From contig JAAUSC010000029.1 of NCBI GenBank assembly GCA_012031965.1, positions 1 through 47,334 of the forward strand: 47,334 bases of DNA, given 5' to 3'. The stretch comes from Scytonema sp. RU_4_4 (GTDB taxonomy: Bacteria; Cyanobacteriota; Cyanobacteriia; Cyanobacteriales; Nostocaceae). Below are positions 34,818-47,332 of this stretch, one piece after another; position 1 is the first letter of the stretch; every line of letters begins with the position of its first letter. The position numbers were made by a program, and so were the translations under genes. The notes under the pieces were generated by a model. It had not been told where the DNA came from. It worked only from the letters and a program-made list of their open reading frames with translations, and did not search any database.

Positions 34818-37800
34818 TCAACAATACAACCAAACGCGCAATAGCGAAAGCAACTGCTCAATGTCTACAGGTTTGGTGATGTAGTCTGATGCACCTGCTT
34901 CGATACACTTTTCTCTGTCGCCTTGCATTGCCTTTGCAGTCAGTGCAATGATTGGCAGAGATTTAAATTGATTGTTTTGCCGAATGAGGCGTGTTGTTTC
35001 ATAACCATCCATTTCTGGCATCATGATATCCATCAAAACAACATTAATGTCTGGTGTGTTTTGCAAAACTTCAATGCCATCTCTACCATTTTCTGCATAA
35101 AAGACCTGCATTTGATAACGCTCTAGCATACTCGTGAGGGCAAAGATATTACGCACATCGTCATCTACGATGAGAACTTTTTTGCCCACAAGTACGGGGT
35201 CATTGGAATGCAATTGTTCTAGAATTTGTCGCTTGGGCGCAGGTAAATTTGCTTGAACTCTATGTAGGAATAGAGCCGTTTCATCAAGGAGACGTTCGGG
35301 CGATCGCACATCTTTAATAATAATTGTCTCTGCCATGCGCCTCAATTGAGTGTCTTCTACTCGACTCAATTCTCTTGCCGTATACACAATAATTGGTAGT
35401 GTTTCACCATTGGGATGTTGTTTGATTCTTTCGATGAGTTCAAACCCGCTCATGTCGGGCAAACCCAAATCAAGAACGACACAATCAAAAGACTCGTTCT
35501 GTATAGCTTCTAACGCCTCTGTACCAGTTTTCACGGCAGTGGTTGCAACATCGGTGTTGCCAATCAATTCTACAATGCTATGCCGTTGATGCTCGTCATC
35601 TTCCACGACTAGCAGATTCTTCACTGGGCGTTCAACGAAACCTTTGATTTTGGCTAATGCTTCATACAACGTTTCACTGCTGATTGGCTTTTGTATATAA
35701 GCAATTGCACCTAGTTGTAATCCCCGCTGGCGTCCCTCCTCAACGGTCATGATATGTACTGGAATATGACGAGTACTTGGGTTATGTTTGAGGCGATCTA
35801 GCACCATCCAACCATCCATTCCTGGTAAGCGGATATCCAAGATGATTGCTGAAGGTTGAAATTGTTGCGCCAGTGCTAAGCCTGCAGTGCCACCATGAGC
35901 GACAATGGCTTTAAATTCTTGTTCTCGCGCCATGTCTAAAAGGATACGGGCAAAATTCATGTCATCTTCGATGATGAGAAGTATGCGTTCGCCTTCTTCA
36001 ATATTGTCTCTGTCGTCGATGAGCGGAGTCGTGATTTGGTGATGAGCTGATGTAGTGACAGAACCAGGAAGATGAAGAGAATGAGAGGAATGTTGCTCCC
36101 AGCCTACGGCTCGCTTCGCTAACATCTGGCTCATCTGGCTCATCTGGCTCATCTCCCAGCCTACGGCTCGCTTCGCTAACATCGTCCCCATCTCTCCATG
36201 AGAGGGATGCGACTGGGGTAAGTACAGTGTAAAAGTACTACCTTCTCCAGGGCGACTCTGAAGTTTTATTTCTCCACCAAGAAGACGGGTAATTTCGCGA
36301 CTCACTGATAAGCCTAATCCTGTACCGCCATATCTGCGACTAGTAGTACCATCAGCTTGTTGAAACGCCTCAAAAATGATTTTTTGCTTATCCGGAGCAA
36401 TACCAATGCCTGTATCGCTCACTGCAAAAGCTATCACAGTTTGAGCGCGATTCAAAGTTTCGTGGTCGCGACTCCACCCTTGCGTTGCGACAAAAACTCG
36501 TAAGCGGACTTCTCCACGATCTGTAAATTTAAAAGCATTGGCGAGCAGATTTTTCAAGACTTGTTGTAAGCGCTTTGCATCAGTATGGATGCTTCTTGGC
36601 AGTTGGGGGGAAAAATCTATGGGAAAATCGAGTCCTTTGTCAACAGCGATTTGTCGAAAAGTTCGCTCAACGTGTTCTTGTAATTCTGTTAACAGTATCT
36701 GGTCTATGTCAATTGACATTGTTCCAGATTCGATTTTTGCCAAATCCAAAATATCATTGATCAGCGTCAAAAGGTCGTTTCCTGATGAGTAAATTGTATG
36801 GCTGTACTCAACTTGTTTCGGCGTAAGGTTTCTCTCAACGTTATCTGATAGTAATTTCGCCAAAATCAACAAGCTGTTTAGCGGTGTCCGTAATTCATGA
36901 GACATATTCGCCAGGAACTCAGACTTGTATTTTGACGAAAGTGCTAGTTGTTCTGCTTTCTCTTCTAATTCTCGGCTTGTCTGTTCAATTTCTTCATTTT
37001 TGCGCTCCACTTCTTTGTTTTGTAAAGCTAATAATTCCGACCTCTCTTCCAGTTCGACGTTCGTTTGTTGTAATTCTTCTTGCTGTTTCTTCAGTAAATC
37101 CTCGGAGGCTTTGAGCGATTGAGCCTGTTGTTCGAGACGCTTGTTTGTTTCCCTGAGTTCATTTTGCTGACTTTGTAACTCTTGTGCTAAAGACTGGGAC
37201 TGTTTGAGTAATTCTTCAGTACGCATACTAGCAGCGATGGTATTCAATACAATCGCTATACTTTCAGTCAGTTGGTCGAAGAATGTCAGATGAATTTCGC
37301 TAAAGCGTCGGAATGAGGCTAGTTCAATAACTGCTGTGACTTGTCCTTCAAACAGAACAGGTAAGACAACGACATTAAAGGGAGTCGCTTCGCCTAAACC
37401 AGAACCAATCTTGATATAGTCTTGCGGTACCTCTGTCAGCAAAATGCGTTCTTTTTCCAAAGCGCATTGTCCTACCAAACCTTCACCCAAGTAGAAGCGG
37501 TTAGCAAGATGCTTACGCTGACGATAAGCATAGCTGCTCAGTAACTTCAAATACTGTGACTCTTCCATAGCATCCATGATATAGAAGACACCATGAGCCC
37601 CTCCTACCAGTGGTGCTAACTCAGAGAGAATGAGTTTGGATACCGTTTCTAGGTCGCGCTGACCTTGAAGCATCCGGGTAAATTTGGCTAGGTTAGTTTT
37701 CAACCAGTCTTGTTCAGTGTTTTTCTGCGTTGTCTCTCGCAGGTTAGCAATCATCTGGTTGATGTAGTCTTTGAGCATGGCGACTTCACCTTGCGCCTCA

Positions 37801-40682
37801 ACAGCAATTGAGCGCGTTAAGTCACCTTTTGTGACAGCAGTTGCAACTTCGGCGATCGCCCGCAGTTGAGTCGTCAGAGTCGCAGCCAGTTCGTTCACGT
37901 TGTCGGTCAAATCTTTCCAAGTTCCCGCAGCCCCCGGTACTTTGGCTTGTCCGCCCAACTTACCTTCAATTCCCACCTCACGCGCCACGGTTGTCACTTG
38001 GTTGGCAAATGTCGCCAGAGTATCAATCATCTCATTAATCGTTTCTGCCAAAGTTTCAATTTCACCTTTAGCATCGAGTGTGAGTTTCCGCTTCAAATCC
38101 CCATTCGCAACCGCCGTCACGACTTTCGCAATACCTCGCACTTGTGCGGTCAAATTACCCGCCATCGAGTTCACATTGTCGGTCAAATCTTTCCAGGTAC
38201 CCGCCACGCCGACAACCTGTGCTTGACCACCGAGTTTACCTTCAGTTCCCACTTCCCGCGCAACTCGCGTCACTTCTGATGCAAAGGAATTGAGTTGATC
38301 CACCATTGTATTGATGGTGTTCTTCAATTCCAGAATTTCACCTTTAACATCAACAGTAATTTTCTTAGAAAGGTCACCGTTGGCGACAGCCGTAGTCACC
38401 TCAGCAATGTTGCGCACCTGTGCGGTTAAAGAACCCGCCATTGAATTCACGCTGTCGGTTAAATCTTTCCAAGTCCCAGCAACGCCTCGTACTTCGGCTT
38501 GGACGCCCAGCTTACCTTCTGTTCCCACTTCCCGCGCTACCCGCGTCACTTCCGATGCAAAGGAATTGAGTTGATCCACCATTGTGTTAACGGTGTTTTT
38601 CAACTCCAAAATTTCACCTTTAACATCAACAGTAATTTTCTTCGAGAGGTCACCAGTTGCAACAGCCGTCGTCACTGCGGCGATGTTTCGCACCTGCGCT
38701 GTTAAGGAACCCGCCATGAAGTTCACGCTGTCAGTTAAATCTTTCCAAGTACCCCCAACGCCTTTGACCTCAGCTTGTACACCCAGCTTTCCTTCTGCAC
38801 CCACTTCACGAGCCACCCGTGTCACTTCCGATGCAAAGGAATTGAGCTGATCCACCATGATATTGATGGTGTTTTTCAACTCCAAAATTTCGCCTTTGAC
38901 CTGCACAGTAATTTTTTTAGAAAGGTCACCGTTTGCTATTGCTGTCGTCACTTCAGCAATGTTTCGCACCTGCGCGGTTAAGGAACCCGCCATGAAATTC
39001 ACGCTGTCGGTCAAGTCCTTCCACGTACCAGCAACGCCTTTGACATCTGCTTGTACACCCAGCGTCCCTTCGGTTCCTACTTCCCGCGCCACTCGTGTGA
39101 CTTCCGATGCAAAGGAACTCAGTTGATCCACCATTGTGTTGATGGTATTTTTCAGTTCTAAAATTTCGCCTTTGACATCAACGGTAATTTTCTTGGAGAG
39201 GTCACCATTTGCAACTGCTGTCGTCACTTCGGCAATATTCCGCACCTGTGCGGTCAAAGAACCCGCCATGAAATTTACACTGTCAGTCAAATCCTTCCAA
39301 GTACCTGCAACGCCTTTGACCTCAGCTTGTACGCCCAGCTTTCCTTCTGCACCCACTTCACGAGCCACCCGCGTCACTTCACCTGCGAAGGAGTTGAGTT
39401 GATCCACCATTGTGTTGATGGTGTTCTTGAGTTCTCGAATTTCGCCTTTGACATCGACGGTGATTTTCTTGGAAAGGTCACCATTTGCAACCGCTGTGGT
39501 CACTTCGGCGATGTTCCGTACCTGGGCTGTCAAGGAACCCGCCATGAAGTTCACGCTGTCGGTCAAGTCTTTCCACGTACCAGCACCACCTTTGACATCT
39601 GCTTGTACACCTAACTTTCCTTCAGAGCCGACTTCACGAGCCACCCGCGTCACTTCCGATGCGAAGGAACTCAACTGATCCACCATGATATTGATGGTGT
39701 TCTTGAGTTCTAGAATTTCACCTCTGACATCAACAGTAATTTTCTTAGAGAGGTCACCATTGGCGATCGCCGTCGTCACTTCAGCAATATTCCGTACCTG
39801 CGCGGTTAAAGAACCCGCCATCAAATTCACGTTATCAGTTAAGTCCTTCCAAGTCCCCGCAACACCCCGCACTTCTGCTTGTACACCCAGCTTTCCTTCC
39901 GTTCCCACTTCACGAGCCACCCGCGTCACTTCTGATGCGAAGGAATTGAGTTGATCGACCATTGTGTTGATGGTGTTTTTCAACTCCAAAATTTCGCCTT
40001 TAACATCGACAGTGATTTTCTTGGAGAGGTCGCCATTTGCTACTGCTGTCGTTACCTCCGCAATATTACGAACTTGTGCGGTTAAGTTTCCCGCCATTGA
40101 ATTCACACTGTCAGTCAAGTCCTTCCAAGTCCCAGCAACACCTGGAACTTCTGCTTTCACTCCCAGCTTACCTTCAGTTCCGACTTCTCTGGCGACTCGT
40201 GTGACTTCCGACGCAAACGAATTTAACTGACCCACCATTGTATTAACCATTTGGGCAGTTTGCAGAAATTCCCCTTTGAGGGGTCTACCTTCAATTTCTG
40301 GGGCGATCGCCTGAGATAAATCCCCATTCGCCACAGCCCGGATCACACGCGCCGTTTCCGCTGTCGGCTGAACCAAATCTGTCACCAGTGTATTGACAGA
40401 ATCAATACAACTTGCCCAAGAACCACGAGTATTTCCTAGAGAGGCGCGTTCACTAATTCTGCCATCTTTACCAACAACATTACCTATCCGCTGTAGCTCT
40501 GCTGTTAGCCGCTCATTTTGTTCAATAATATCGTTGAGCGTATCAGAGATTTTTCCTGCCATACCAGTTTGGTCTATTGGCATACGAGCAGAAAAGTCAC
40601 CTTTTTTAGCAGCTACCAGCGTTTTCAGTAGCTGTTGTAAATCTAAATTATCGCTTTCTCTGGTTAACTGTTCAGTGGACAT
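34818..40682 (-). CDS. soluble poly-HAMP hybrid histidine kinase with three receiver domains
   Basis: The 1954-residue protein has no membrane helix. Residues 154-981 are nine 92-residue HAMP repeats (each with WKDLTDSVN and [14 protein letters not shown]). Then come a GAF domain (about 1005-1150), a coiled coil (1155-1255), HisKA with His1262 in NMSHELRTP, and an ATPase (N box [12 protein letters not shown]1 SDTGIGI, G2 [10 protein letters not shown]). A linker with repeat-derived sequence (1500-1530) is followed by receivers with Asp1616, Asp1738 and Asp1885. REC2 has IIIKD in place of KP. The architecture recalls fungal group III osmosensing kinases and related bacterial poly-HAMP kinases. 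The signal is unknown. No partner regulator is adjacent. Confidence 0.95.
36097..36183. repeat. duplicated palindromic repeat in the kinase linker
   Basis: Two identical 30-base copies containing CCTACGGCTCGCTTCGCTAA (36097-36126, 36154-36183) flank three TGGCTCATC units. In protein this is LAKRAVGWE, then MSQ units, then LAKRAVGWE between the ATPase and REC1. The whole stretch is in frame and looks like repeat DNA absorbed into a tolerant linker. Confidence 0.85.
37740..40223 (-). repeat. nine 276-bp HAMP-coding direct repeats
   Basis: The DNA coding for residues 154-981 of the kinase is nine tandem 276-base units, the inner seven nearly identical. Such arrays recombine easily, so unit number may differ between strains and short-read assembly may collapse it. 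Confidence 0.92.
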
Positions 40683-41198: not shown

Positions 41199-41456
41199 GT
41201 GCCAAGCAAAATCCGCAAGCAAATTTATATCGAACCCCATCAAGAACATTTACTCAAGGCGATCGCCCAGCAAATAGGTGTAAGCGAAGCTGAAATTATT
41301 CGCCAAGCCATCGATTTACACATTGGTTCTATGACCACTTCTCAAACAAATATTGCCGCCTGGGAAGCAGAAAAAGTCTTTATCAACAGCATCAAAAATC
41401 GACCTTCTATAGCAGGAGGACGAGACTGGCAACGAGAAGACCTGTATGAACGGTAG
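41199..41456 (+). CDS. vapB: VapB-type antitoxin, ribbon-helix-helix
   Basis: The 85 residues start at GTG 41199 (MPSKIRKQIYIEP). RKQIYIEPHQEHLLKAIAQQ then IGVSEAEIIRQAIDLHI is an Arc/CopG-type fold; the C-terminal part (AAWEAEKVFINSIKNRP, then GGRDWQREDLYER) would wrap the toxin. It overlaps the PIN toxin gene by 11 bases, the usual arrangement for coupled translation. A palindromic operator lies just upstream. This is the only toxin-antitoxin pair in the window in which both genes look intact. Confidence 0.88.
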   Translation: MPSKIRKQIYIEPHQEHLLKAIAQQIGVSEAEIIRQAIDLHIGSMTTSQTNIAAWEAEKVFINSIKNRPSIAGGRDWQREDLYER

Positions 41457-41880
41457 AGTTTTGCTGGATACTAATATTCTTGTTTACATTTATGACTCTT
41501 TCGACTCTATAAAACAGGAACGGGCAATTGCAATTGTTGACAGACTTATTCAAACAAACCGTGCTGTGATTAGTACCCAAGTCATGGGTGAGTTTTTCAT
41601 GGCGACAACTCGTACCAGAAGACAGCTTCTGAGTCCAGCAGAGGCGATCGCCCGGATACGTAATTATATGAGTGCTTGTTCTGTGGTTGATGTAACCAGG
41701 CTCATTATTTTAGAAGCAATTCGCGGCGTTGAAGCTCATAAGTTTGGATTTTGGGATGCTCAAATTTGGGCAACTGCGAGGCTGAATCAAATTTCAGAGG
41801 TTTACAGTGAGGATTTCAACACTGGTGCAATCATAGAGGGTGTACAGTTTACTAATCCTCTCACAATTGAGCACCCATAG
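41446..41880 (+). CDS. vapC: VapC-type PIN-domain ribonuclease toxin
   Basis: The 144-residue protein starts at ATG 41446 inside vapB. PIN nucleases cut RNA with acidic residues: Asp8 in LLDTNILVYIYD, Glu near 48 in QVMGEFF, and Asp near 105 and 123 in FWDAQIWATA and YSEDFN. All are present and the length is normal, so the toxin should be active. Expression is expected to be repressed by the VapB-VapC complex. The next gene is on the opposite strand, and the 120-base gap is filled with short hairpin repeats. Confidence 0.9.
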   Translation: MNGRVLLDTNILVYIYDSFDSIKQERAIAIVDRLIQTNRAVISTQVMGEFFMATTRTRRQLLSPAEAIARIRNYMSACSVVDVTRLIILEAIRGVEAHKFGFWDAQIWATARLNQISEVYSEDFNTGAIIEGVQFTNPLTIEHP

Positions 41881-42003: not shown

Positions 42004-43425
42004 CTACCTCTCTCCTCGCTGAGTCCAACGCCAAGCCAGCCAACCAAAAAACAAGGTCGCTGCAACACTCCAAAACAACGATGTGACTATAGGATGGGGC
42101 GGGTTATGAAAAGAAATGGGCGCAAATGGTTTATCGATGTGTTGTGTGACAACGCCAGATACTATTGCACCTGCACCTAAGCCGACACCGACGATTTGAA
42201 TGGTGTTTTCTAGAGAGCGATCGCGTTCGGCTTGTTCTATTTCTACTATGCCGCGAATTGAGGATATAGCTTGCTCTAACAAGGTGGTACCGTGGCGGAA
42301 ATATCCCAAGTCAGCTTGAATTTGTTTTTGGAAGAAAGGAGAGTTTTCCTGACTGAAGGTTTTTAAAAACAGCAATTCATCATTTTCTATGATACCACTA
42401 ATTTGTTGCAAACGTTCAGAATAATTAGACTCATTTATGGCGATTGTATTTTGATAGTCTTCTAAATTTCGCAGCAAGCGAGTGTATCTTAAGGCTAATT
42501 GCGGTAATTCTTTTAATTTGTTTTTTAAGTCTTTTAGTTCGCTTGTTGTGACTTCATTATCTTCGCCTTGATTGGGCAAATTATCAATTGCGTCTTCTAT
42601 ATCTTGATAGGCAGAAGCGATGAGGCGATAAGTTTCTCTACTGTCTTGATAAGATTTGACAACCTTGGTGCGAAAGAAGAACAAATCTAAGAGTTCTTGA
42701 TAACATAGATTAAAATTATCATCTGCTTTGTTATCGCGGAATAACCAGATGAGGACGTGTTGATAATTTGGTAACTGGCTAAACAAGCCATATTCAAAAA
42801 TTGGACTTCCGAATAACTCTCCTTGACGACTCAAAGGCGGACGTTGAGATGGGTTAGGAAAAACTGCTTCCAGACACTCTTCGGCGATTTTAGAAAGATG
42901 TTTTTCATCTTTAGCGCCTGTTAACCAAGCGGTTATTAAGAGAGTTTGTCCAAGAAAGAATTTGTTTTTTTCTTTGTTTGTTTCTAGGGTGAAACAATTA
43001 TTTGGATTTAGCTTGCTCAAGAAAGCAATATCGACATCTTCAGTTGGGTTACCATCATCTTCTTTTTCGGGACGACGTAAATTGAGCCACAAACCGTAGC
43101 TGTCATGAAGTCGCAAGGGTTGAGCAAAGCCTTTGATGACGACTTGTTGCTTGTTATCTACGGAAATTTTACCTTTTATATCTACGACATAATTATCGTC
43201 TTTGACTTCTGAGTCTTTGAGCAAGTCAACGCGGGGACTTTCCGGTTCTTTATGAATATCTATACGCTGACTGAGATGTAAATCTTGATTTAGGGTGCTG
43301 TGGACTATTTTCTCAACACTTTGCCACAGTTGAATATCATCAGCTTGCACAGAAGTGGTATCTACATTTGCACCCTTGTAAAGCTGAAAAGCAAAGAGGT
43401 GAATATTAGGAGCATAGATTTTCAT
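42004..43425 (-). CDS. CHAT-associated protein with two C-terminal membrane helices, CATRA-like
   Basis: I do not recognise a catalytic family. The 473 residues start at ATG 43425. The first 230 residues are a mixed soluble domain (MKIYAPNIHLFAFQLYKG, FCFT-less FTLETNKEKNKFFLGQTLLI, VLIWLFRDNKADDNFNLCYQ). Residues 240-400 are helical and coiled-coil-like. Two hydrophobic helices end the protein, TIQIVGVGLGAGAIVSGVVT (408-427) and IVTSLFWSVAATLFFGWLAW (446-465). It is the third gene of a run with a CHAT protease and a small helical protein. The set matches, from memory, the CATRA (CHAT/caspase and TPR repeat associated) conflict systems; this gene would be CATRA itself and a membrane-acting effector or sensor. 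Confidence 0.6.
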   Translation of the reverse strand: MKIYAPNIHLFAFQLYKGANVDTTSVQADDIQLWQSVEKIVHSTLNQDLHLSQRIDIHKEPESPRVDLLKDSEVKDDNYVVDIKGKISVDNKQQVVIKGFAQPLRLHDSYGLWLNLRRPEKEDDGNPTEDVDIAFLSKLNPNNCFTLETNKEKNKFFLGQTLLITAWLTGAKDEKHLSKIAEECLEAVFPNPSQRPPLSRQGELFGSPIFEYGLFSQLPNYQHVLIWLFRDNKADDNFNLCYQELLDLFFFRTKVVKSYQDSRETYRLIASAYQDIEDAIDNLPNQGEDNEVTTSELKDLKNKLKELPQLALRYTRLLRNLEDYQNTIAINESNYSERLQQISGIIENDELLFLKTFSQENSPFFQKQIQADLGYFRHGTTLLEQAISSIRGIVEIEQAERDRSLENTIQIVGVGLGAGAIVSGVVTQHIDKPFAPISFHNPPHPIVTSLFWSVAATLFFGWLAWRWTQRGER

Positions 43426-43512
43426 GTAAGGTCTTGGTACTCAGTTTTTAATATTCTCATACTCTCTCTCATCTCTCTCTCGTCTCTCGTTCCCATGCTC
43501 TGCGTGGGAATC

Positions 43513-43950
43513 TCTCGTTCCCATGCTCTGCATGGGAATGCATTCTATGAGGCTCCGCCTCCAGTTTACCAGTCTTGAGGCAGAGCCTCACACCATGCGT
43601 TCCCAGCCACAGGCTAGGAACCAGAAGCACGAGAAGCCAAAGGCTAGGAACCAGAAGCACGAGAAGTCGAAGGCTAGGAACGAAAAACACGAGAAGCCAC
43701 AGGCTAGGAACCAGAAAATGAGAGACAAGAAACTTTATCGTACATTAAAGGGTTTCTCGTTCCCATGCTCTGCATGGGAATGCATTCTTATGAGGCTCCG
43801 CCTCCAGTTTACCAGTCTTGAGGCAGAGCCTCACACCATGCATTCCCAGCCACAGGCTAGGAACCAGAAGCACGAGAAGCCAAAGGCTAGGAAGCAGAAG
43901 CACGAGAAGTCGAAGGCTAGGAACAAGAAAATGAGAGACAAGAAACTTTA
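43513..43950. repeat. tandem duplication of a composite repeat
   Basis: Unit 1 (43513-43737) and unit 2 (43755-43950) both begin TCTCGTTCCCATGCTCTGCA and end GAGACAAGAAACTTTA. Each holds a hairpin (GAGGCTCCGCCTCC, GGCAGAGCCTC) and several 27-base copies of AAGGCTAGGAACCAGAAGCA; unit 2 has one fewer. It fills the 522-base gap between the last two genes of the CHAT operon. The stop codon of the small gene (43948-43950) lies at its edge. The open frame across it is repeat-derived, not a gene. Confidence 0.85.
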
Positions 43951-44280
43951 TTTATCTTCCTTCTTTCTCTCTTGTAACTTCTGCACTTCCTCTTGCACAA
44001 CTCGGTAACGATTTTCCAGAGTATTTTCTTGGCTTTGCGGCTTTGTCTTCGCGACTTTACTAATTTCTCGTTCTTCAATAAGTATGGCATCTCTCACAAA
44101 TTCATGATTAATGTACCACTGGCGAAGAACTTCTACAATTGTTTGTGAGGTAAGATTTTCTTCTATCGCAGTAAGGTTTTTTTGTAATGTGGGTAAATCA
44201 GCGATCGCCACGTCAGAAAACACATAATCTTGTTCTCTCACGACTTGGGTAAAGGCTTCGATGATGTTATCTGCTTCCAT
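43948..44280 (-). CDS. small helical protein of the CHAT operon
   Basis: The 110 residues start at ATG 44280. The protein is all helix by pattern: MEADNIIEAFTQVVREQDYV, LPTLQKNLTAIEENL, QTIVEVLRQWYINHEFVRDA, then a charged coiled coil to the C-terminus (YRVVQEEVQKLQERKKE). No signal, membrane or metal site. Its position between the CHAT protease and the membrane-helix protein, and its size, fit the CATRA-associated small protein described for such systems, as I recall the naming. It could be an adaptor, an inhibitor or the substrate of the protease. There are 139 bases between the CHAT stop and this start, largely a MITE. Confidence 0.6.
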   Translation of the reverse strand: MEADNIIEAFTQVVREQDYVFSDVAIADLPTLQKNLTAIEENLTSQTIVEVLRQWYINHEFVRDAILIEEREISKVAKTKPQSQENTLENRYRVVQEEVQKLQERKKEDK

Positions 44281-44338
44281 AATTTATACCTGTTTGAGAT
44301 TTTGAATTTGAGATTATCTTCTCTGCGCAAGCTTAAGG

Positions 44339-44421
44339 AACCTCACCCTGCCCTGCGGGCATCCCTCTCCTTAGCGAAGGAGAGGGAAAGATTTAGCGCA
44401 GCTAAAAGCGAGGGTGAGGTT
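44339..44421. mobile_element. 83-bp MITE-like repeat overlapping the CHAT stop codon
   Basis: AACCTCACCCT and AGGGTGAGGTT are perfect inverted ends around hairpin CCCTCTCCTT/AAGGAGAGGG. A near-identical copy ends the window (47249-47332) and a shorter relative lies inside the CHAT gene (45219-45278). Its right end supplies two bases of the TAA stop of the CHAT gene (44420-44422). Confidence 0.8.
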
Positions 44422-46942
44422 ATTCTCCAACTGCACAAAAAGCAGCCCAAAAAGCCGGCTGTTTAAATGGTCGCTCTTCTGGTTTATAGTTTTCTAATCT
44501 CTCTTTTACTTTCTGTTTTTGCTGAGCGTTCATATCTGTTTTACCATCAAGCCATTGCAGTAACTCGCGTTGAGTGACTCGACGAAACCACTGCTGGGCA
44601 GAGTTAAGAGCAAATGGCACATTTTGAGTTACAGTTTGCAGGTTTTCATAAAATTTAATCATTAACAAAGCAGTGGAAAAGTCATCCACAGCCCATAAAG
44701 CACTGACGATACTAGCAGCACCGGCGCAGATAAACCCACTGGGTAAACCAATATATTCATCGCTGATATTCAAACCGTCAACTAAGCCAGTTTCGCAAGC
44801 GGAAAGAGTGACAAGACGACAGTTTGGTAAACTTAATTGGAAGATATCTTTTAGAGTGAGACAATTTTCTAAGTCAATTTCTGTATCACGAGAGATTCGC
44901 AAATAGCGGGAGGTTTCTGCATCTTCTCGTCTCCGAGAAATTTCAGAAGCGGCTAACTGTAAAGCTGATTTTTCTGGTGAGTCAAAATTGAAGTAGCCGT
45001 GACAAGAAAAATGCAGCCAGTTTGCATTGCGGAAATTTTCGGCGGTTGGTGGTTCTGCTAAAGCAGCTGCTGTTGCTTCATTCTTTTTCAGGATGTGGCG
45101 TGGGTGAAATGCAGCAGCAATTGTCTCGACTTCGATATCGGTGAAGTCTAAATCCTTTGTGGGGTTTTGAATGGCGAATAGGTGACGAAATGGTGAGTCA
45201 TACCCAGTTGTATTCAAAACCTCACCCCCGCCCCTCTCCTTACTAAGGAGAGGGGTGCCCGTCAGGGCGGGGTGAGGTAATTTAGTATGAGATGATGTCT
45301 TGGCTTTGTTTTGAGTCACGCGCCAAAGTTGACAACTCGGTGCATAACTGACGCCATTGGGGAATTTGTCTATGAGATATTCCTCTGATGATAACGGTAA
45401 AGCATGGAGAGGGAGTAGGTGCAGGTAAAGATTGGGAATTAAAATAACTTTCTTGCATTGAGGTGAGACAAGAGAAAGAATTTCTTGTATATGTAAAATC
45501 TCAGCGAGTTTGCTCAGTTGATCATTGAGGGAAAATCGCCAGTGCTTTTTGTCGCCATAGTAAAGCTGGAGATATTCAACTATCCAATCCCACAACTTTT
45601 CTAAGTCTTGAGGTTCGGACTGCCAAATTTCTGGTTGTTCCTTGTGGCGGGTGATGATGAAAGCGCGAAAACAATTGCCAAAGATATAGAACTGAATAAT
45701 GGCAGTTTCCCTGTCTAACAGGTTGTAAATTTCGTCATAGCGGATGGGATTCAAGCCGATAATTCTTGTGATCAGTTGTTCTCCCTTTTGACGCAACTGA
45801 TTCAACTGGTGGCGATTGACAATATCATGGGGATTAGATTTTTCTGCTTGTTCTATACGGTGCTTTTCTTTTTCGATGTCTTGCTGTAGCTGTTGGAGTT
45901 GATTTTTGAATTCTTCAGGTATGGCGAGTTTGGAGTACAACTCAGGGCTAAACAACAGTTCCACCAAGTTACGGGTTTTGCTACGCTCAATATATTCAAT
46001 TGCTTCGGTAGATTTTTTCAACTCCAGACAAACTTCTACCATGCAGCGATAAAGTGCATTCCATTCTTCTGCTTGCTTGCGTTTGCTTTCCTCACCAGAA
46101 ACAATTTCCCCTCGCAACAACTCCGCTGTTTCAATAGCAGATTTAAAAGTTGTGTAAGCATCAGTGAACCGTTGTGCATCTTGGTAAGTAATACCCAGGT
46201 TGAATAATGTGTCAGCATGATTTTGCGGGAAGGCGTCGCGGGTTAATACAGACAAAGCAGCAGAGAAAGATGCGATCGCCATTTCTAAATTCTGTGCTTT
46301 CTCCCCCAATATTCTGTCAGAGTAAGCATTCCCCAGATTATTTTGCGTACTCGCCCAATCTTGGGGGAAGGCGTCGCGGGTGAATACGGTTAACACGACT
46401 TCATAACCAGCAATCGCAATTTCCATGTTGCTGGCTTTGTCACCCAAGGGGAATTGCTGAATGAGATTACTAAACTCAACAATCACTGCGGCGAAGAATT
46501 GTGCGACATCTGTCTCAACTTCCGCCAGCTTATTTGTCGCCCAAAGCCGCAAGAGTTCTGCTAAATTCAGATTGAGATATTGTGTGTTGTTTGCCAGCAA
46601 CGGGTAAACTACCTGCGCGTCACCATTGCTTTCTGCTGTTGCTTGCAGTACCTTCCCCAAGAATTGCAGATGCGCTTGTAACTCCTCTTCTGAAATGTTC
46701 CCAGCAGTTGGTGACGGTAAATTCAACGCTTCCCTCAACCGATTTGCCAGATTTCTCAACAAATTTGCAGTATTTTCATTCCCCTGCTGTACTTTCATCT
46801 CCGCCACAGCTTCCAGCATGAGCAAGAATTCAGCATCAAGTAAATCAAGGTTCGCCTGTAAAATCTCTGGTTCTTCTCCACTCGGACAATTCAGCAGTCT
46901 TTCAATCAAGTCGAGATAAGCTTGCTGGCGCTGTTCGTTCAT
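44420..46942 (-). CDS. CHAT-domain protease with TPR repeats
   Basis: The 840-residue protein has a helical N-terminus (1-150), TPR repeats (about 150-330, with DAFPQDWASTQNNLGNAYSD and a second DAFPQNHADTLFNLGITY), a coiled coil (340-390) and a C-terminal CHAT domain. CHAT is a caspase-like Cys protease; the dyad is His648 in LHFSCHGYF and Cys716 in VTLSACETG, both present. TPR-CHAT proteins act as proteases in bacterial conflict and cell-death systems, sometimes cutting a neighbouring effector. Residues about 555-575 (HPALTGTPLLSKERGGGE) come from a repeat inserted in frame. The gene leads an operon with the small helical protein and the membrane-helix protein. The ribosome site before ATG is weak. 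Confidence 0.9.
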   Translation of the reverse strand: MNEQRQQAYLDLIERLLNCPSGEEPEILQANLDLLDAEFLLMLEAVAEMKVQQGNENTANLLRNLANRLREALNLPSPTAGNISEEELQAHLQFLGKVLQATAESNGDAQVVYPLLANNTQYLNLNLAELLRLWATNKLAEVETDVAQFFAAVIVEFSNLIQQFPLGDKASNMEIAIAGYEVVLTVFTRDAFPQDWASTQNNLGNAYSDRILGEKAQNLEMAIASFSAALSVLTRDAFPQNHADTLFNLGITYQDAQRFTDAYTTFKSAIETAELLRGEIVSGEESKRKQAEEWNALYRCMVEVCLELKKSTEAIEYIERSKTRNLVELLFSPELYSKLAIPEEFKNQLQQLQQDIEKEKHRIEQAEKSNPHDIVNRHQLNQLRQKGEQLITRIIGLNPIRYDEIYNLLDRETAIIQFYIFGNCFRAFIITRHKEQPEIWQSEPQDLEKLWDWIVEYLQLYYGDKKHWRFSLNDQLSKLAEILHIQEILSLVSPQCKKVILIPNLYLHLLPLHALPLSSEEYLIDKFPNGVSYAPSCQLWRVTQNKAKTSSHTKLPHPALTGTPLLSKERGGGEVLNTTGYDSPFRHLFAIQNPTKDLDFTDIEVETIAAAFHPRHILKKNEATAAALAEPPTAENFRNANWLHFSCHGYFNFDSPEKSALQLAASEISRRREDAETSRYLRISRDTEIDLENCLTLKDIFQLSLPNCRLVTLSACETGLVDGLNISDEYIGLPSGFICAGAASIVSALWAVDDFSTALLMIKFYENLQTVTQNVPFALNSAQQWFRRVTQRELLQWLDGKTDMNAQQKQKVKERLENYKPEERPFKQPAFWAAFCAVGE
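45219..45278. repeat. 60-bp palindromic repeat inserted in frame in the CHAT gene
   Basis: ACCTCACC and GGTGAGGT are the ends; CCCCTCTCCTTACTAAGGAG and AGGGG form an inner hairpin. Sixty bases are exactly 20 codons. It is a shorter relative of the MITE at 44339-44421 and sits in a loop before the CHAT core. Confidence 0.8.
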
Positions 46943-47248: not shown

Positions 47249-47332
47249 TACCTCACCCTGCCCTATCGGGCATCCCTCTCCTTAATAAGGAGAGGGAAAG
47301 ATTTAGCGCAGCTAAAAGCGAGGGTGAGGTTA
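47249..47332. mobile_element. MITE-like repeat, second full copy
   Basis: It begins TACCTCACCCT and ends AGGGTGAGGTTA, with the same inner hairpin and the same ATTTAGCGCAGCTAAAAGCG block as 44339-44421; the two differ mainly around the loop. It flanks the CHAT operon on its upstream side. Confidence 0.8.

What the first reader, a model, noticed from the sequence alone, without database searches (positions are those of the whole stretch)
42004..46942. Three-gene CHAT protease / small helical protein / two-helix membrane protein operon
One-directional genes encode a TPR-CHAT protease with an intact His648-Cys716 dyad, a 110-residue helical protein and a 473-residue protein ending in two membrane helices. 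No housekeeping role fits. The set resembles CATRA-type conflict systems as I recall them. Hypothesis: the TPR domain senses a trigger, CHAT cuts the small or the membrane protein, and the membrane helices then disrupt or signal at the membrane. I am not aware that the biochemistry of this family has been worked out.
Basis: partly seen in the sequence, partly recalled or inferred. Interest (0 to 1): 0.85.

Follow-up and report, generated by a model that had tools for sequence, protein, structure and literature searches.

The report
Conserved protease and membrane-protein gene trio
A cyanobacterium carries a three-gene unit, found again in many other cyanobacteria, that pairs a caspase-like protease with a small helical protein and a membrane protein whose predicted shape recalls a CorA ion channel; it may be a cell-death or immunity switch, but no part of it was tested in the laboratory here.

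Summary
In detail: three minus-strand genes encode a TPR-CHAT protease (840 aa, His648/Cys716), a 110-aa helical protein (S110) and a 473-aa protein with two C-terminal membrane helices (M473). The trio is real: of 122 distinct M473 copies examined, 95 lie behind CHAT and S110 in the same order and strand. The three co-vary, plasmid copies exist, and one M473 is naturally fused to an S110 domain.

CATRA membership is not supported by sequence: CATRA-N gave no hit in 386 and CATRA-C none over cut-off in 244 cyanobacterial genomes. The layout (CHAT-TPR, small protein, larger partner) is parallel; a profile-to-profile test was not possible.

New here: AlphaFold2 gives M473 an alpha/beta head, a helical hairpin, a long stalk helix running into TM1, then TM2. 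The first 16 of 898 Foldseek hits are CorA, CmaX, ZntB or MRS2. Against it: weak superposition (TM 0.18-0.27), low model confidence in the membrane part, no GMN motif (0 of 53).

Best model: a triggered CHAT protease frees or activates a CorA-like membrane effector held by S110. Trigger, cleavage and toxicity are inferred.

The parts
44420..46942 (-). TPR-CHAT protease gene, 840 aa; first gene of the trio
   Evidence: ORF; PF12770 E 5.4e-46, TPR_12 E 1.2e-7
44423..45514 (-). CHAT caspase-like domain (aa 477-840)
   Evidence: PF12770 place in the genome search
44999..45001 (-). Codon of catalytic His648 (HFSCHG)
   Evidence: sequence; invariant in 21 of 21
44795..44797 (-). Codon of catalytic Cys716 (LSACET)
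   Evidence: sequence; invariant in 21 of 21
46127..46360 (-). Short TPR region (about aa 195-272); most relatives have longer arrays
   Evidence: Pfam TPR hits; unit counts by a crude pattern, window 1, median 6 of 72 CHATs
45218..45278 (-). 61-bp interspersed repeat in frame in a CHAT loop; not part of the mechanism
   Evidence: similar stretches at 44340-44374 and 47250-47296; loop empty or differently filled in some relatives
43948..44280 (-). S110, 110-aa helical protein; second gene
   Evidence: ORF; AF2 five helices; no Pfam match over cut-off for the window protein
42004..43425 (-). M473, 473-aa protein with two TM helices and CorA-like arrangement; third gene
   Evidence: ORF; AF2 pLDDT 83.9, pTM 0.78; Foldseek CorA/MRS2/ZntB/CmaX
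42736..43425 (-). M473 N-terminal alpha/beta head (aa 1-230)
   Evidence: AF2 secondary structure
42205..42732 (-). M473 helical hairpin and stalk helix (aa 232-407)
   Evidence: AF2 helices 232-281, 294-345, 352-429
42148..42204 (-). M473 TM1 (aa 408-426), glycine-rich, continuous with the stalk helix in the model
   Evidence: hydropathy; AF2, pLDDT here about 46-55
42034..42090 (-). M473 TM2 (aa 446-464)
   Evidence: hydropathy; AF2, pLDDT about 65-74
43426..43947 (-). 522-bp S110-M473 spacer with 30-bp tandem repeats
   Evidence: tandem repeat finder

Best explanation
The trio is a cyanobacterial conflict (immunity or programmed-death) module. CHAT is a protease kept inactive until its N-terminal helical and TPR region meets a trigger. 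M473 is a membrane effector built on the CorA plan: cytoplasmic alpha/beta head, helical hairpin, long stalk helix continuing into TM1, then TM2, probably oligomeric. S110 is a small partner, most likely bound to M473 on the cytoplasmic side, that holds it closed or couples it to CHAT. When triggered, CHAT cuts S110 or M473, the membrane protein opens or rearranges, and ions leak, halting or killing the infected or damaged cell. Shown: conserved gene order, co-variation of the three, conserved catalytic residues, two membrane helices, one natural S110-M473 fusion, predicted fold. Inferred: trigger, cleavage and its target, channel activity, oligomer, the biological role.
For: Trio in 95 of 122 distinct M473 copies, and 79 of 99 where at least 3 kb upstream was held. 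S110-M473 spacing 32 bp or less in 57 of 83. Distance matrices of 87 distinct trios correlate: S110-M473 r 0.885, CHAT-M473 0.688, CHAT-S110 0.662, 0 of 999 permutations as high in each; all three share species history and CHAT was cut to its last 330 residues, so only the higher S110-M473 value hints at a direct pair. A 621-aa M473 with a C-terminal S110 domain in Scytonema NIES-4073 (E 1.1e-11). His/Cys invariant in 21 of 21. The CHAT protein resembles NCBIfam Csx29, the CRISPR TPR-CHAT protease, at E 1.9e-18, below that model's cut-off. CorA-like fold. Plasmid copies: 13 plasmid records match M473; of the 3 read, all have CHAT beside it, one on a conjugative plasmid. Paralogues: up to 11 M473 matches per genome.
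Against: No cleavage, toxicity or defence result exists. 15 of 99 M473 copies with at least 3 kb upstream have neither partner nearby, so M473 can persist without them; in two of those genomes (G043, whose copy is only 347 aa, and G065) it is the only M473 match found. Superposition on CorA is weak (TM by query length 0.18-0.27, rmsd 9.9-17.9), the membrane part of the model is of low confidence (segments 415-421 and 429-439 under pLDDT 50), the GMN motif is absent in 53 of 53, and sequence profiles show no kinship with CorA (hhalign probability 0.7% against a narrow CorA profile). PADLOC recognises none of the three. Defence genes were seen near some trios but with housekeeping genes too and no control set.
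Confidence: 0.45

Rival explanations
1. It is a diverged cyanobacterial CATRA system: M473 is CATRA (N plus C domains, with added membrane helices) and S110 is CATASP, too far diverged for HMMER.
For: Same three kinds of part. Sizes run parallel: Pfam CATRA-N 203, CATRA-C 137 and CATASP 86 positions against a 230-aa head, a helical region of about 175 aa and an S110 core of about 80 aa. CATRA is expanded as Caspase and TPR repeat-associated (one figure-legend passage, PMC12657218).
Against: No CATRA-N hit at E <= 0.01 in 386 cyanobacterial genomes. CATRA-C: none over cut-off in 244; two weak hits, of which L122 was read and looks like a chemotaxis-type receptor by eye, L121 was not read. Among 30 M473 and 30 S110 relatives no CATRA family appears in the families shown at E <= 0.1 (25 of 34 and 25 of 28 families shown). 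None of the CATRA searches rang in a control genome at the default threshold, so their reach is unproven.
Confidence: 0.25
2. It is a regulatory rather than lethal module: CHAT proteolysis tunes a membrane transporter or sensor, as HetF, the CHAT protein of heterocyst development, acts in regulation, with no conflict role.
For: HetF is a divisome and heterocyst protein of Anabaena (search listing and start of abstract only, PMC8406250; that CHAT is named after HetF was seen in a legend passage, PMC10910872). Some lone M473 copies sit in like chromosomal settings in related genomes. The own genome has 53 CHAT matches, so CHAT alone does not imply defence.
Against: Patchy presence (112 of 195 genomes of the order), several copies per genome, plasmid carriage and TPR arrays of 0 to 26 pattern units in 72 CHATs (crude pattern) look more like conflict genes than core regulators.
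Confidence: 0.2
3. The CHAT protein cuts an unlinked host protein, and S110 and M473 are only an anchor or guard.
For: Csx29 cuts Csx30, an inhibitor of a sigma factor, rather than a membrane effector (passages of PMC10028731).
Against: S110-M473 co-variation and their fusion point to a local partner.
Confidence: 0.1

Closest known systems
[quoted passage not shown]
   Same: Caspase-like protease with TPRs, a small partner and a larger partner
   Different: No sequence match to CATRA-N, CATRA-C or CATASP found; two membrane helices and a CorA-like arrangement in M473. The defining paper (Burroughs and Aravind 2020) was not held; what it says of CATRA is recalled.
Type III-E CRISPR Craspase (Csx29 TPR-CHAT with Csx30)
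   Same: TPR-CHAT protease with a His-Cys dyad (passages of PMC9729208); candidate substrates in the same operon
   Different: Csx29 model not reached (66.7 bits against 300); the trio itself holds no Cas7-11 or sigma factor. Neighbours were not searched for Cas7-11 in particular.
Type III CRISPR CorA effector activated by SAM-AMP
   Same: Divergent CorA-type membrane protein with a larger N-terminal domain in an immune setting (passages of PMC10600005)
   Different: Here the linked enzyme is a protease; no nucleotide-signal gene belongs to the trio
CorA/MRS2/ZntB two-TM channels
   Same: Order of parts: alpha/beta head, helices, stalk continuing into TM1, TM2 at the C-terminus (the CorA plan itself is recalled)
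   Different: No GMN motif (0 of 53), no Pfam CorA match for the window protein, weak superposition
Bacterial gasdermin systems
   Same: Protease-activated membrane effector as a concept (recalled)
   Different: No gasdermin family among the Pfam matches shown and none in the 50 fold hits shown

Membership tests
CATRA system | CHAT/caspase protease with TPRs in the operon | tested here: met
   Pfam CHAT and TPR
CATRA system | CATRA-N domain (PF20269) | tested here: not met
   own genome none; 0 of 386 cyanobacterial genomes at E <= 0.01. No control rang, so sensitivity is unproven.
CATRA system | CATRA-C domain (PF20270) | tested here: not met
   own genome none; 0 of 244 over cut-off, 2 below it at E <= 0.001. 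No control rang.
CATRA system | CATASP small protein (PF20271) | tested here: not met
   own genome none; not among the 25 of 28 families shown for 30 S110 relatives. No control rang.
CATRA system | Remote homology of M473/S110 to CATRA/CATASP by profile or fold | not testable with these tools
   no true CATRA sequence obtained: no match over cut-off for CATASP or CATRA-C in 3 actinomycete plasmid records (a fourth was too large), none for CATRA-N in 11
CHAT proteases | PF12770 over cut-off with His-Cys dyad | tested here: met
   157.8 bits against cut-off 24; H648/C716 invariant in 21 of 21
Csx29 (type III-E CRISPR) | NCBIfam Csx29 over cut-off | tested here: not met
   66.7 bits against cut-off 300
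Csx29 (type III-E CRISPR) | Cas7-11 next to it | not tested
   no search for Cas7-11 was made
CorA two-TM channels | GMN signature after TM1 | tested here: not met
   0 of 53
CorA two-TM channels | CorA fold and order of parts | tested here: inconclusive
   first 16 of 898 Foldseek hits are of this superfamily, best E 4.9e-5, but TM-scores 0.18-0.27 and low confidence in the membrane part
CorA two-TM channels | Sequence-profile kinship | tested here: not met
   no Pfam CorA match for the window protein at E <= 1; not among the 25 of 34 families shown for 30 members; hhalign probability 0.7% against 16 cyanobacterial CorA proteins, one a fragment
CorA two-TM channels | Pentameric ion channel | not testable with these tools
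   no multimer prediction or assay

The most novel reading that the evidence does not exclude
A caspase-family protease gates a CorA-architecture membrane channel through a small fuse protein: a proteolytically triggered ion-channel death switch, widespread in cyanobacteria. No description of it appeared in the listings of the ten paper searches.
Probability: 0.28. Interest if true: 0.82.

Novelty: new variant of a known kind. Interest (0 to 1): 0.62.

Why it matters
CHAT proteases are numerous in such cyanobacteria (53 matches in this genome), and, to my knowledge, few have a known substrate. This trio names two linked candidate substrates and one candidate effector with a testable predicted fold, so the question of what cyanobacterial caspase-like proteases do becomes a defined experiment. 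If the CorA-like reading holds, it joins the type III CRISPR CorA effectors as a second route by which immunity uses this channel plan, with a protease in place of a nucleotide signal.

Tried and rejected
S110 as a copy of the CHAT N-terminal adaptor: plausible by eye, rejected by hhalign (probability 0.6%). S110 versus M473 homology: none (probability 0.5%). S110 fold search in the PDB: best E 1.0. Viral fold library for M473: none at E <= 0.001. CATRA in actinomycete plasmids, to obtain reference sequences: nothing over cut-off; the weak CATRA-C hit in Embleya lies in an ORF that by eye is TPR-like repeats running into a CHAT-type protein. Actinomycete CHAT neighbours in L239, L242 and L244 tested as CATRA: no CATRA match. 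Defence-island enrichment: PADLOC matches among 86 of the 110 neighbours listed, which lie in 24 of the 32 trio loci that I chose (ZorA, ZorB, Csx1, TnpB-like and others), with housekeeping neighbours too and no control, so not used as evidence. The 326-aa Okeania ORF joining a CHAT N-terminal part and the M473 C-terminus may be a deletion product and is not counted as a fusion. CHAT tree (FastTree): trio CHATs cluster (5 changes against 10.6 shuffled), but only 4 CHATs of this genome outside the trio could be placed, so it says little.

Sampling limits: the 60 order loci were chosen by me from the places listed (the best plus some weaker ones), not at random; the 80 named loci are the best 80 of 264. 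Identical M473 sequences were counted once (140 to 122). Start codons were assigned mechanically. S110 and CHAT were recognised with profiles built from the same loci. Alignment A3 left out L069 and L104 after one search failed.
Full report
What is there. The order of transcription is CHAT (44420-46942), S110 (43948-44280), M473 (42004-43425), all on the minus strand. Pfam finds CHAT and TPR in the first and nothing over a cut-off in the other two; among 30 relatives of each, the best scattered matches are 0.0018 (DUF2207_C, M473) and 0.00042 (DUF2026, one S110), none shared by more than three members. PADLOC gives one weak match (BovA, E 0.21) for CHAT and none for the others. The catalytic His648 and Cys716 are at the stated positions and invariant among 21 aligned trio CHATs. 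A wider pattern count gave the His motif in 86 and the Cys motif in 86 of 94 CHAT ORFs of 600 aa or more; the listed misses include frames that other rows show to be split and others that I did not examine. All three genes are under purifying selection.

Is the trio real? A search of 195 genomes of the order found M473 relatives in 112. I took longer stretches around 60 of the listed places and 80 named loci from the GTDB collection (the best 80 of 264; all 80 have cyanobacterial titles). With identical M473 copies counted once there are 122: 95 have CHAT and S110 upstream in order and on one strand, 7 have S110 only, 1 has CHAT only, 19 have neither. Where at least 3 kb upstream was held, the numbers are 79, 4, 1 and 15 of 99. 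The S110-M473 spacing is 32 bp or less in 57 of 83, with a 4-bp overlap in 17, which suggests coupled translation. In the window this spacing is 522 bp and holds 30-bp tandem repeats. The own genome holds 53 CHAT matches but one S110 and one full M473 plus a relic with a stop, so the linkage is not a by-product of CHAT being everywhere.

Inheritance. Among 87 distinct trios, distance matrices correlate at r 0.885 for S110-M473, 0.688 for CHAT-M473 and 0.662 for CHAT-S110, with 0 of 999 permutations as high in each. Shared species history contributes to all three, and only the last 330 residues of CHAT were used; the higher value for S110-M473, although S110 is the least conserved (median identity 0.22), suggests that these two fit each other. 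In Scytonema NIES-4073 one M473 of 621 aa carries an S110 domain after its membrane helices, which places S110 beside M473. Of 13 plasmid records with an M473 match I read three: Pseudanabaena (S110 and M473 precede CHAT genes), Nostoc C052 on a conjugative plasmid with transposases nearby, and Planktothrix, where the small middle protein was not recognised by my S110 profile.

What M473 is. With 53 sequences AlphaFold2 gave pLDDT 83.9 and pTM 0.78: an alpha/beta region to residue 230, helices 232-281 and 294-345, a 78-residue helix 352-429 that contains TM1, and a last helix 445-472 that contains TM2. Confidence is high in the head and the helices but low in the membrane part (415-421 and 429-439 under 50). 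Foldseek against the PDB returned 898 matches; the first 16 are all CorA, CmaX, ZntB or MRS2, seven of them at E <= 0.001, the best at 4.9e-5. That is the CorA order of parts as I know it. Against it: TM-scores by query length are 0.18-0.27, there is no GMN motif in any of 53, no Pfam CorA match for the window protein, and hhalign against 16 cyanobacterial CorA proteins gave 0.7%, although that CorA profile was narrow. I therefore claim a CorA-like arrangement, not CorA membership. S110 has no fold match (best E 1.0).

CATRA. Pfam holds CATRA-N (203 positions), CATRA-C (137) and CATASP (86). None hits this genome. CATRA-N hit 0 of 386 cyanobacterial genomes at E <= 0.01 and CATRA-C 0 of 244 over its cut-off, with two weak hits. 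None of these searches rang in a control genome, so their reach is unproven, and no true CATRA sequence could be fetched for a profile-to-profile test. The likeness is one of composition and size. CATRA is expanded as Caspase and TPR repeat-associated in a legend of PMC12657218 (one passage seen) and called a caspase-dependent ternary system in PMC8195603 (passages seen); the founding paper was not held.

How it may work. Csx29, a TPR-CHAT protease, is switched on by its complex and cuts Csx30, which inhibits a sigma factor (passages of PMC10028731; passages of PMC9729208). A CorA-type effector in type III CRISPR is proposed to open on binding SAM-AMP (passages of PMC10600005). By analogy, CHAT here would sense through its N-terminal and TPR region and cut S110 or M473, opening or freeing M473. 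The small gene before the membrane gene, close spacing and co-variation favour S110 as holder of M473. Lone M473 copies (15 of 99 with enough sequence upstream) show that M473 persists without its partners, which fits a protein that needs activation, or a non-lethal channel.

Literature. The listings of ten searches of the open library showed no description of this trio; most subscription papers are not in it, and the papers were seen as listings or passages, so this is no proof of absence.

Verdict. A real, conserved module, undescribed in what was searched; conflict role likely (about 0.65, judgement), CorA-like membrane effector plausible (about 0.5, judgement), CATRA membership not met at sequence level but open at fold level.

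Noticed in passing
window 45218-45278 (-); CHAT ORFs of L123, L124, L125, L126: One CHAT loop seems a hot spot for in-frame insertion of short repeats: the window and Scytonema NIES-4073 carry like inserts, Brasilonema UFV-L1 and UBA11370 carry different ones, Brasilonema CT11 has almost none.
   Followed up: partly
window 41199-41880 (+): A ribbon-helix-helix gene followed by a PIN-domain gene, a VapBC-like toxin-antitoxin pair, lies beside the trio on the other strand.
   Followed up: no
window 34818-40682 (-): A 1954-aa protein with many near-identical repeats before histidine-kinase and receiver-like regions; by eye a HAMP-repeat hybrid kinase (not searched).
   Followed up: no
L198 1422-2402: A 326-aa Okeania ORF joins a CHAT N-terminal/TPR region directly to the M473 C-terminal membrane part, next to a complete trio; fusion or deletion remnant.
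   Followed up: partly
L062-L068 (L144, L150, L152, L154 are partly the same places), L158, L160, L177, L181: M473 genes without CHAT or S110 recur in like chromosomal settings in Microcoleus, Oscillatoria and Tychonema kin; L160 has little sequence upstream.
   Followed up: partly
L239 345-1690 and L244 120-1456: Two actinomycete CHAT genes are preceded by a 132-141-aa gene and a 307-324-aa gene with hydrophobic stretches, none with a Pfam family over cut-off; a possibly analogous module.
   Followed up: partly
G000 C312:27426-27809 (L219): Relic of a second M473 (C-terminal part, one stop inside) elsewhere in the genome.
   Followed up: no
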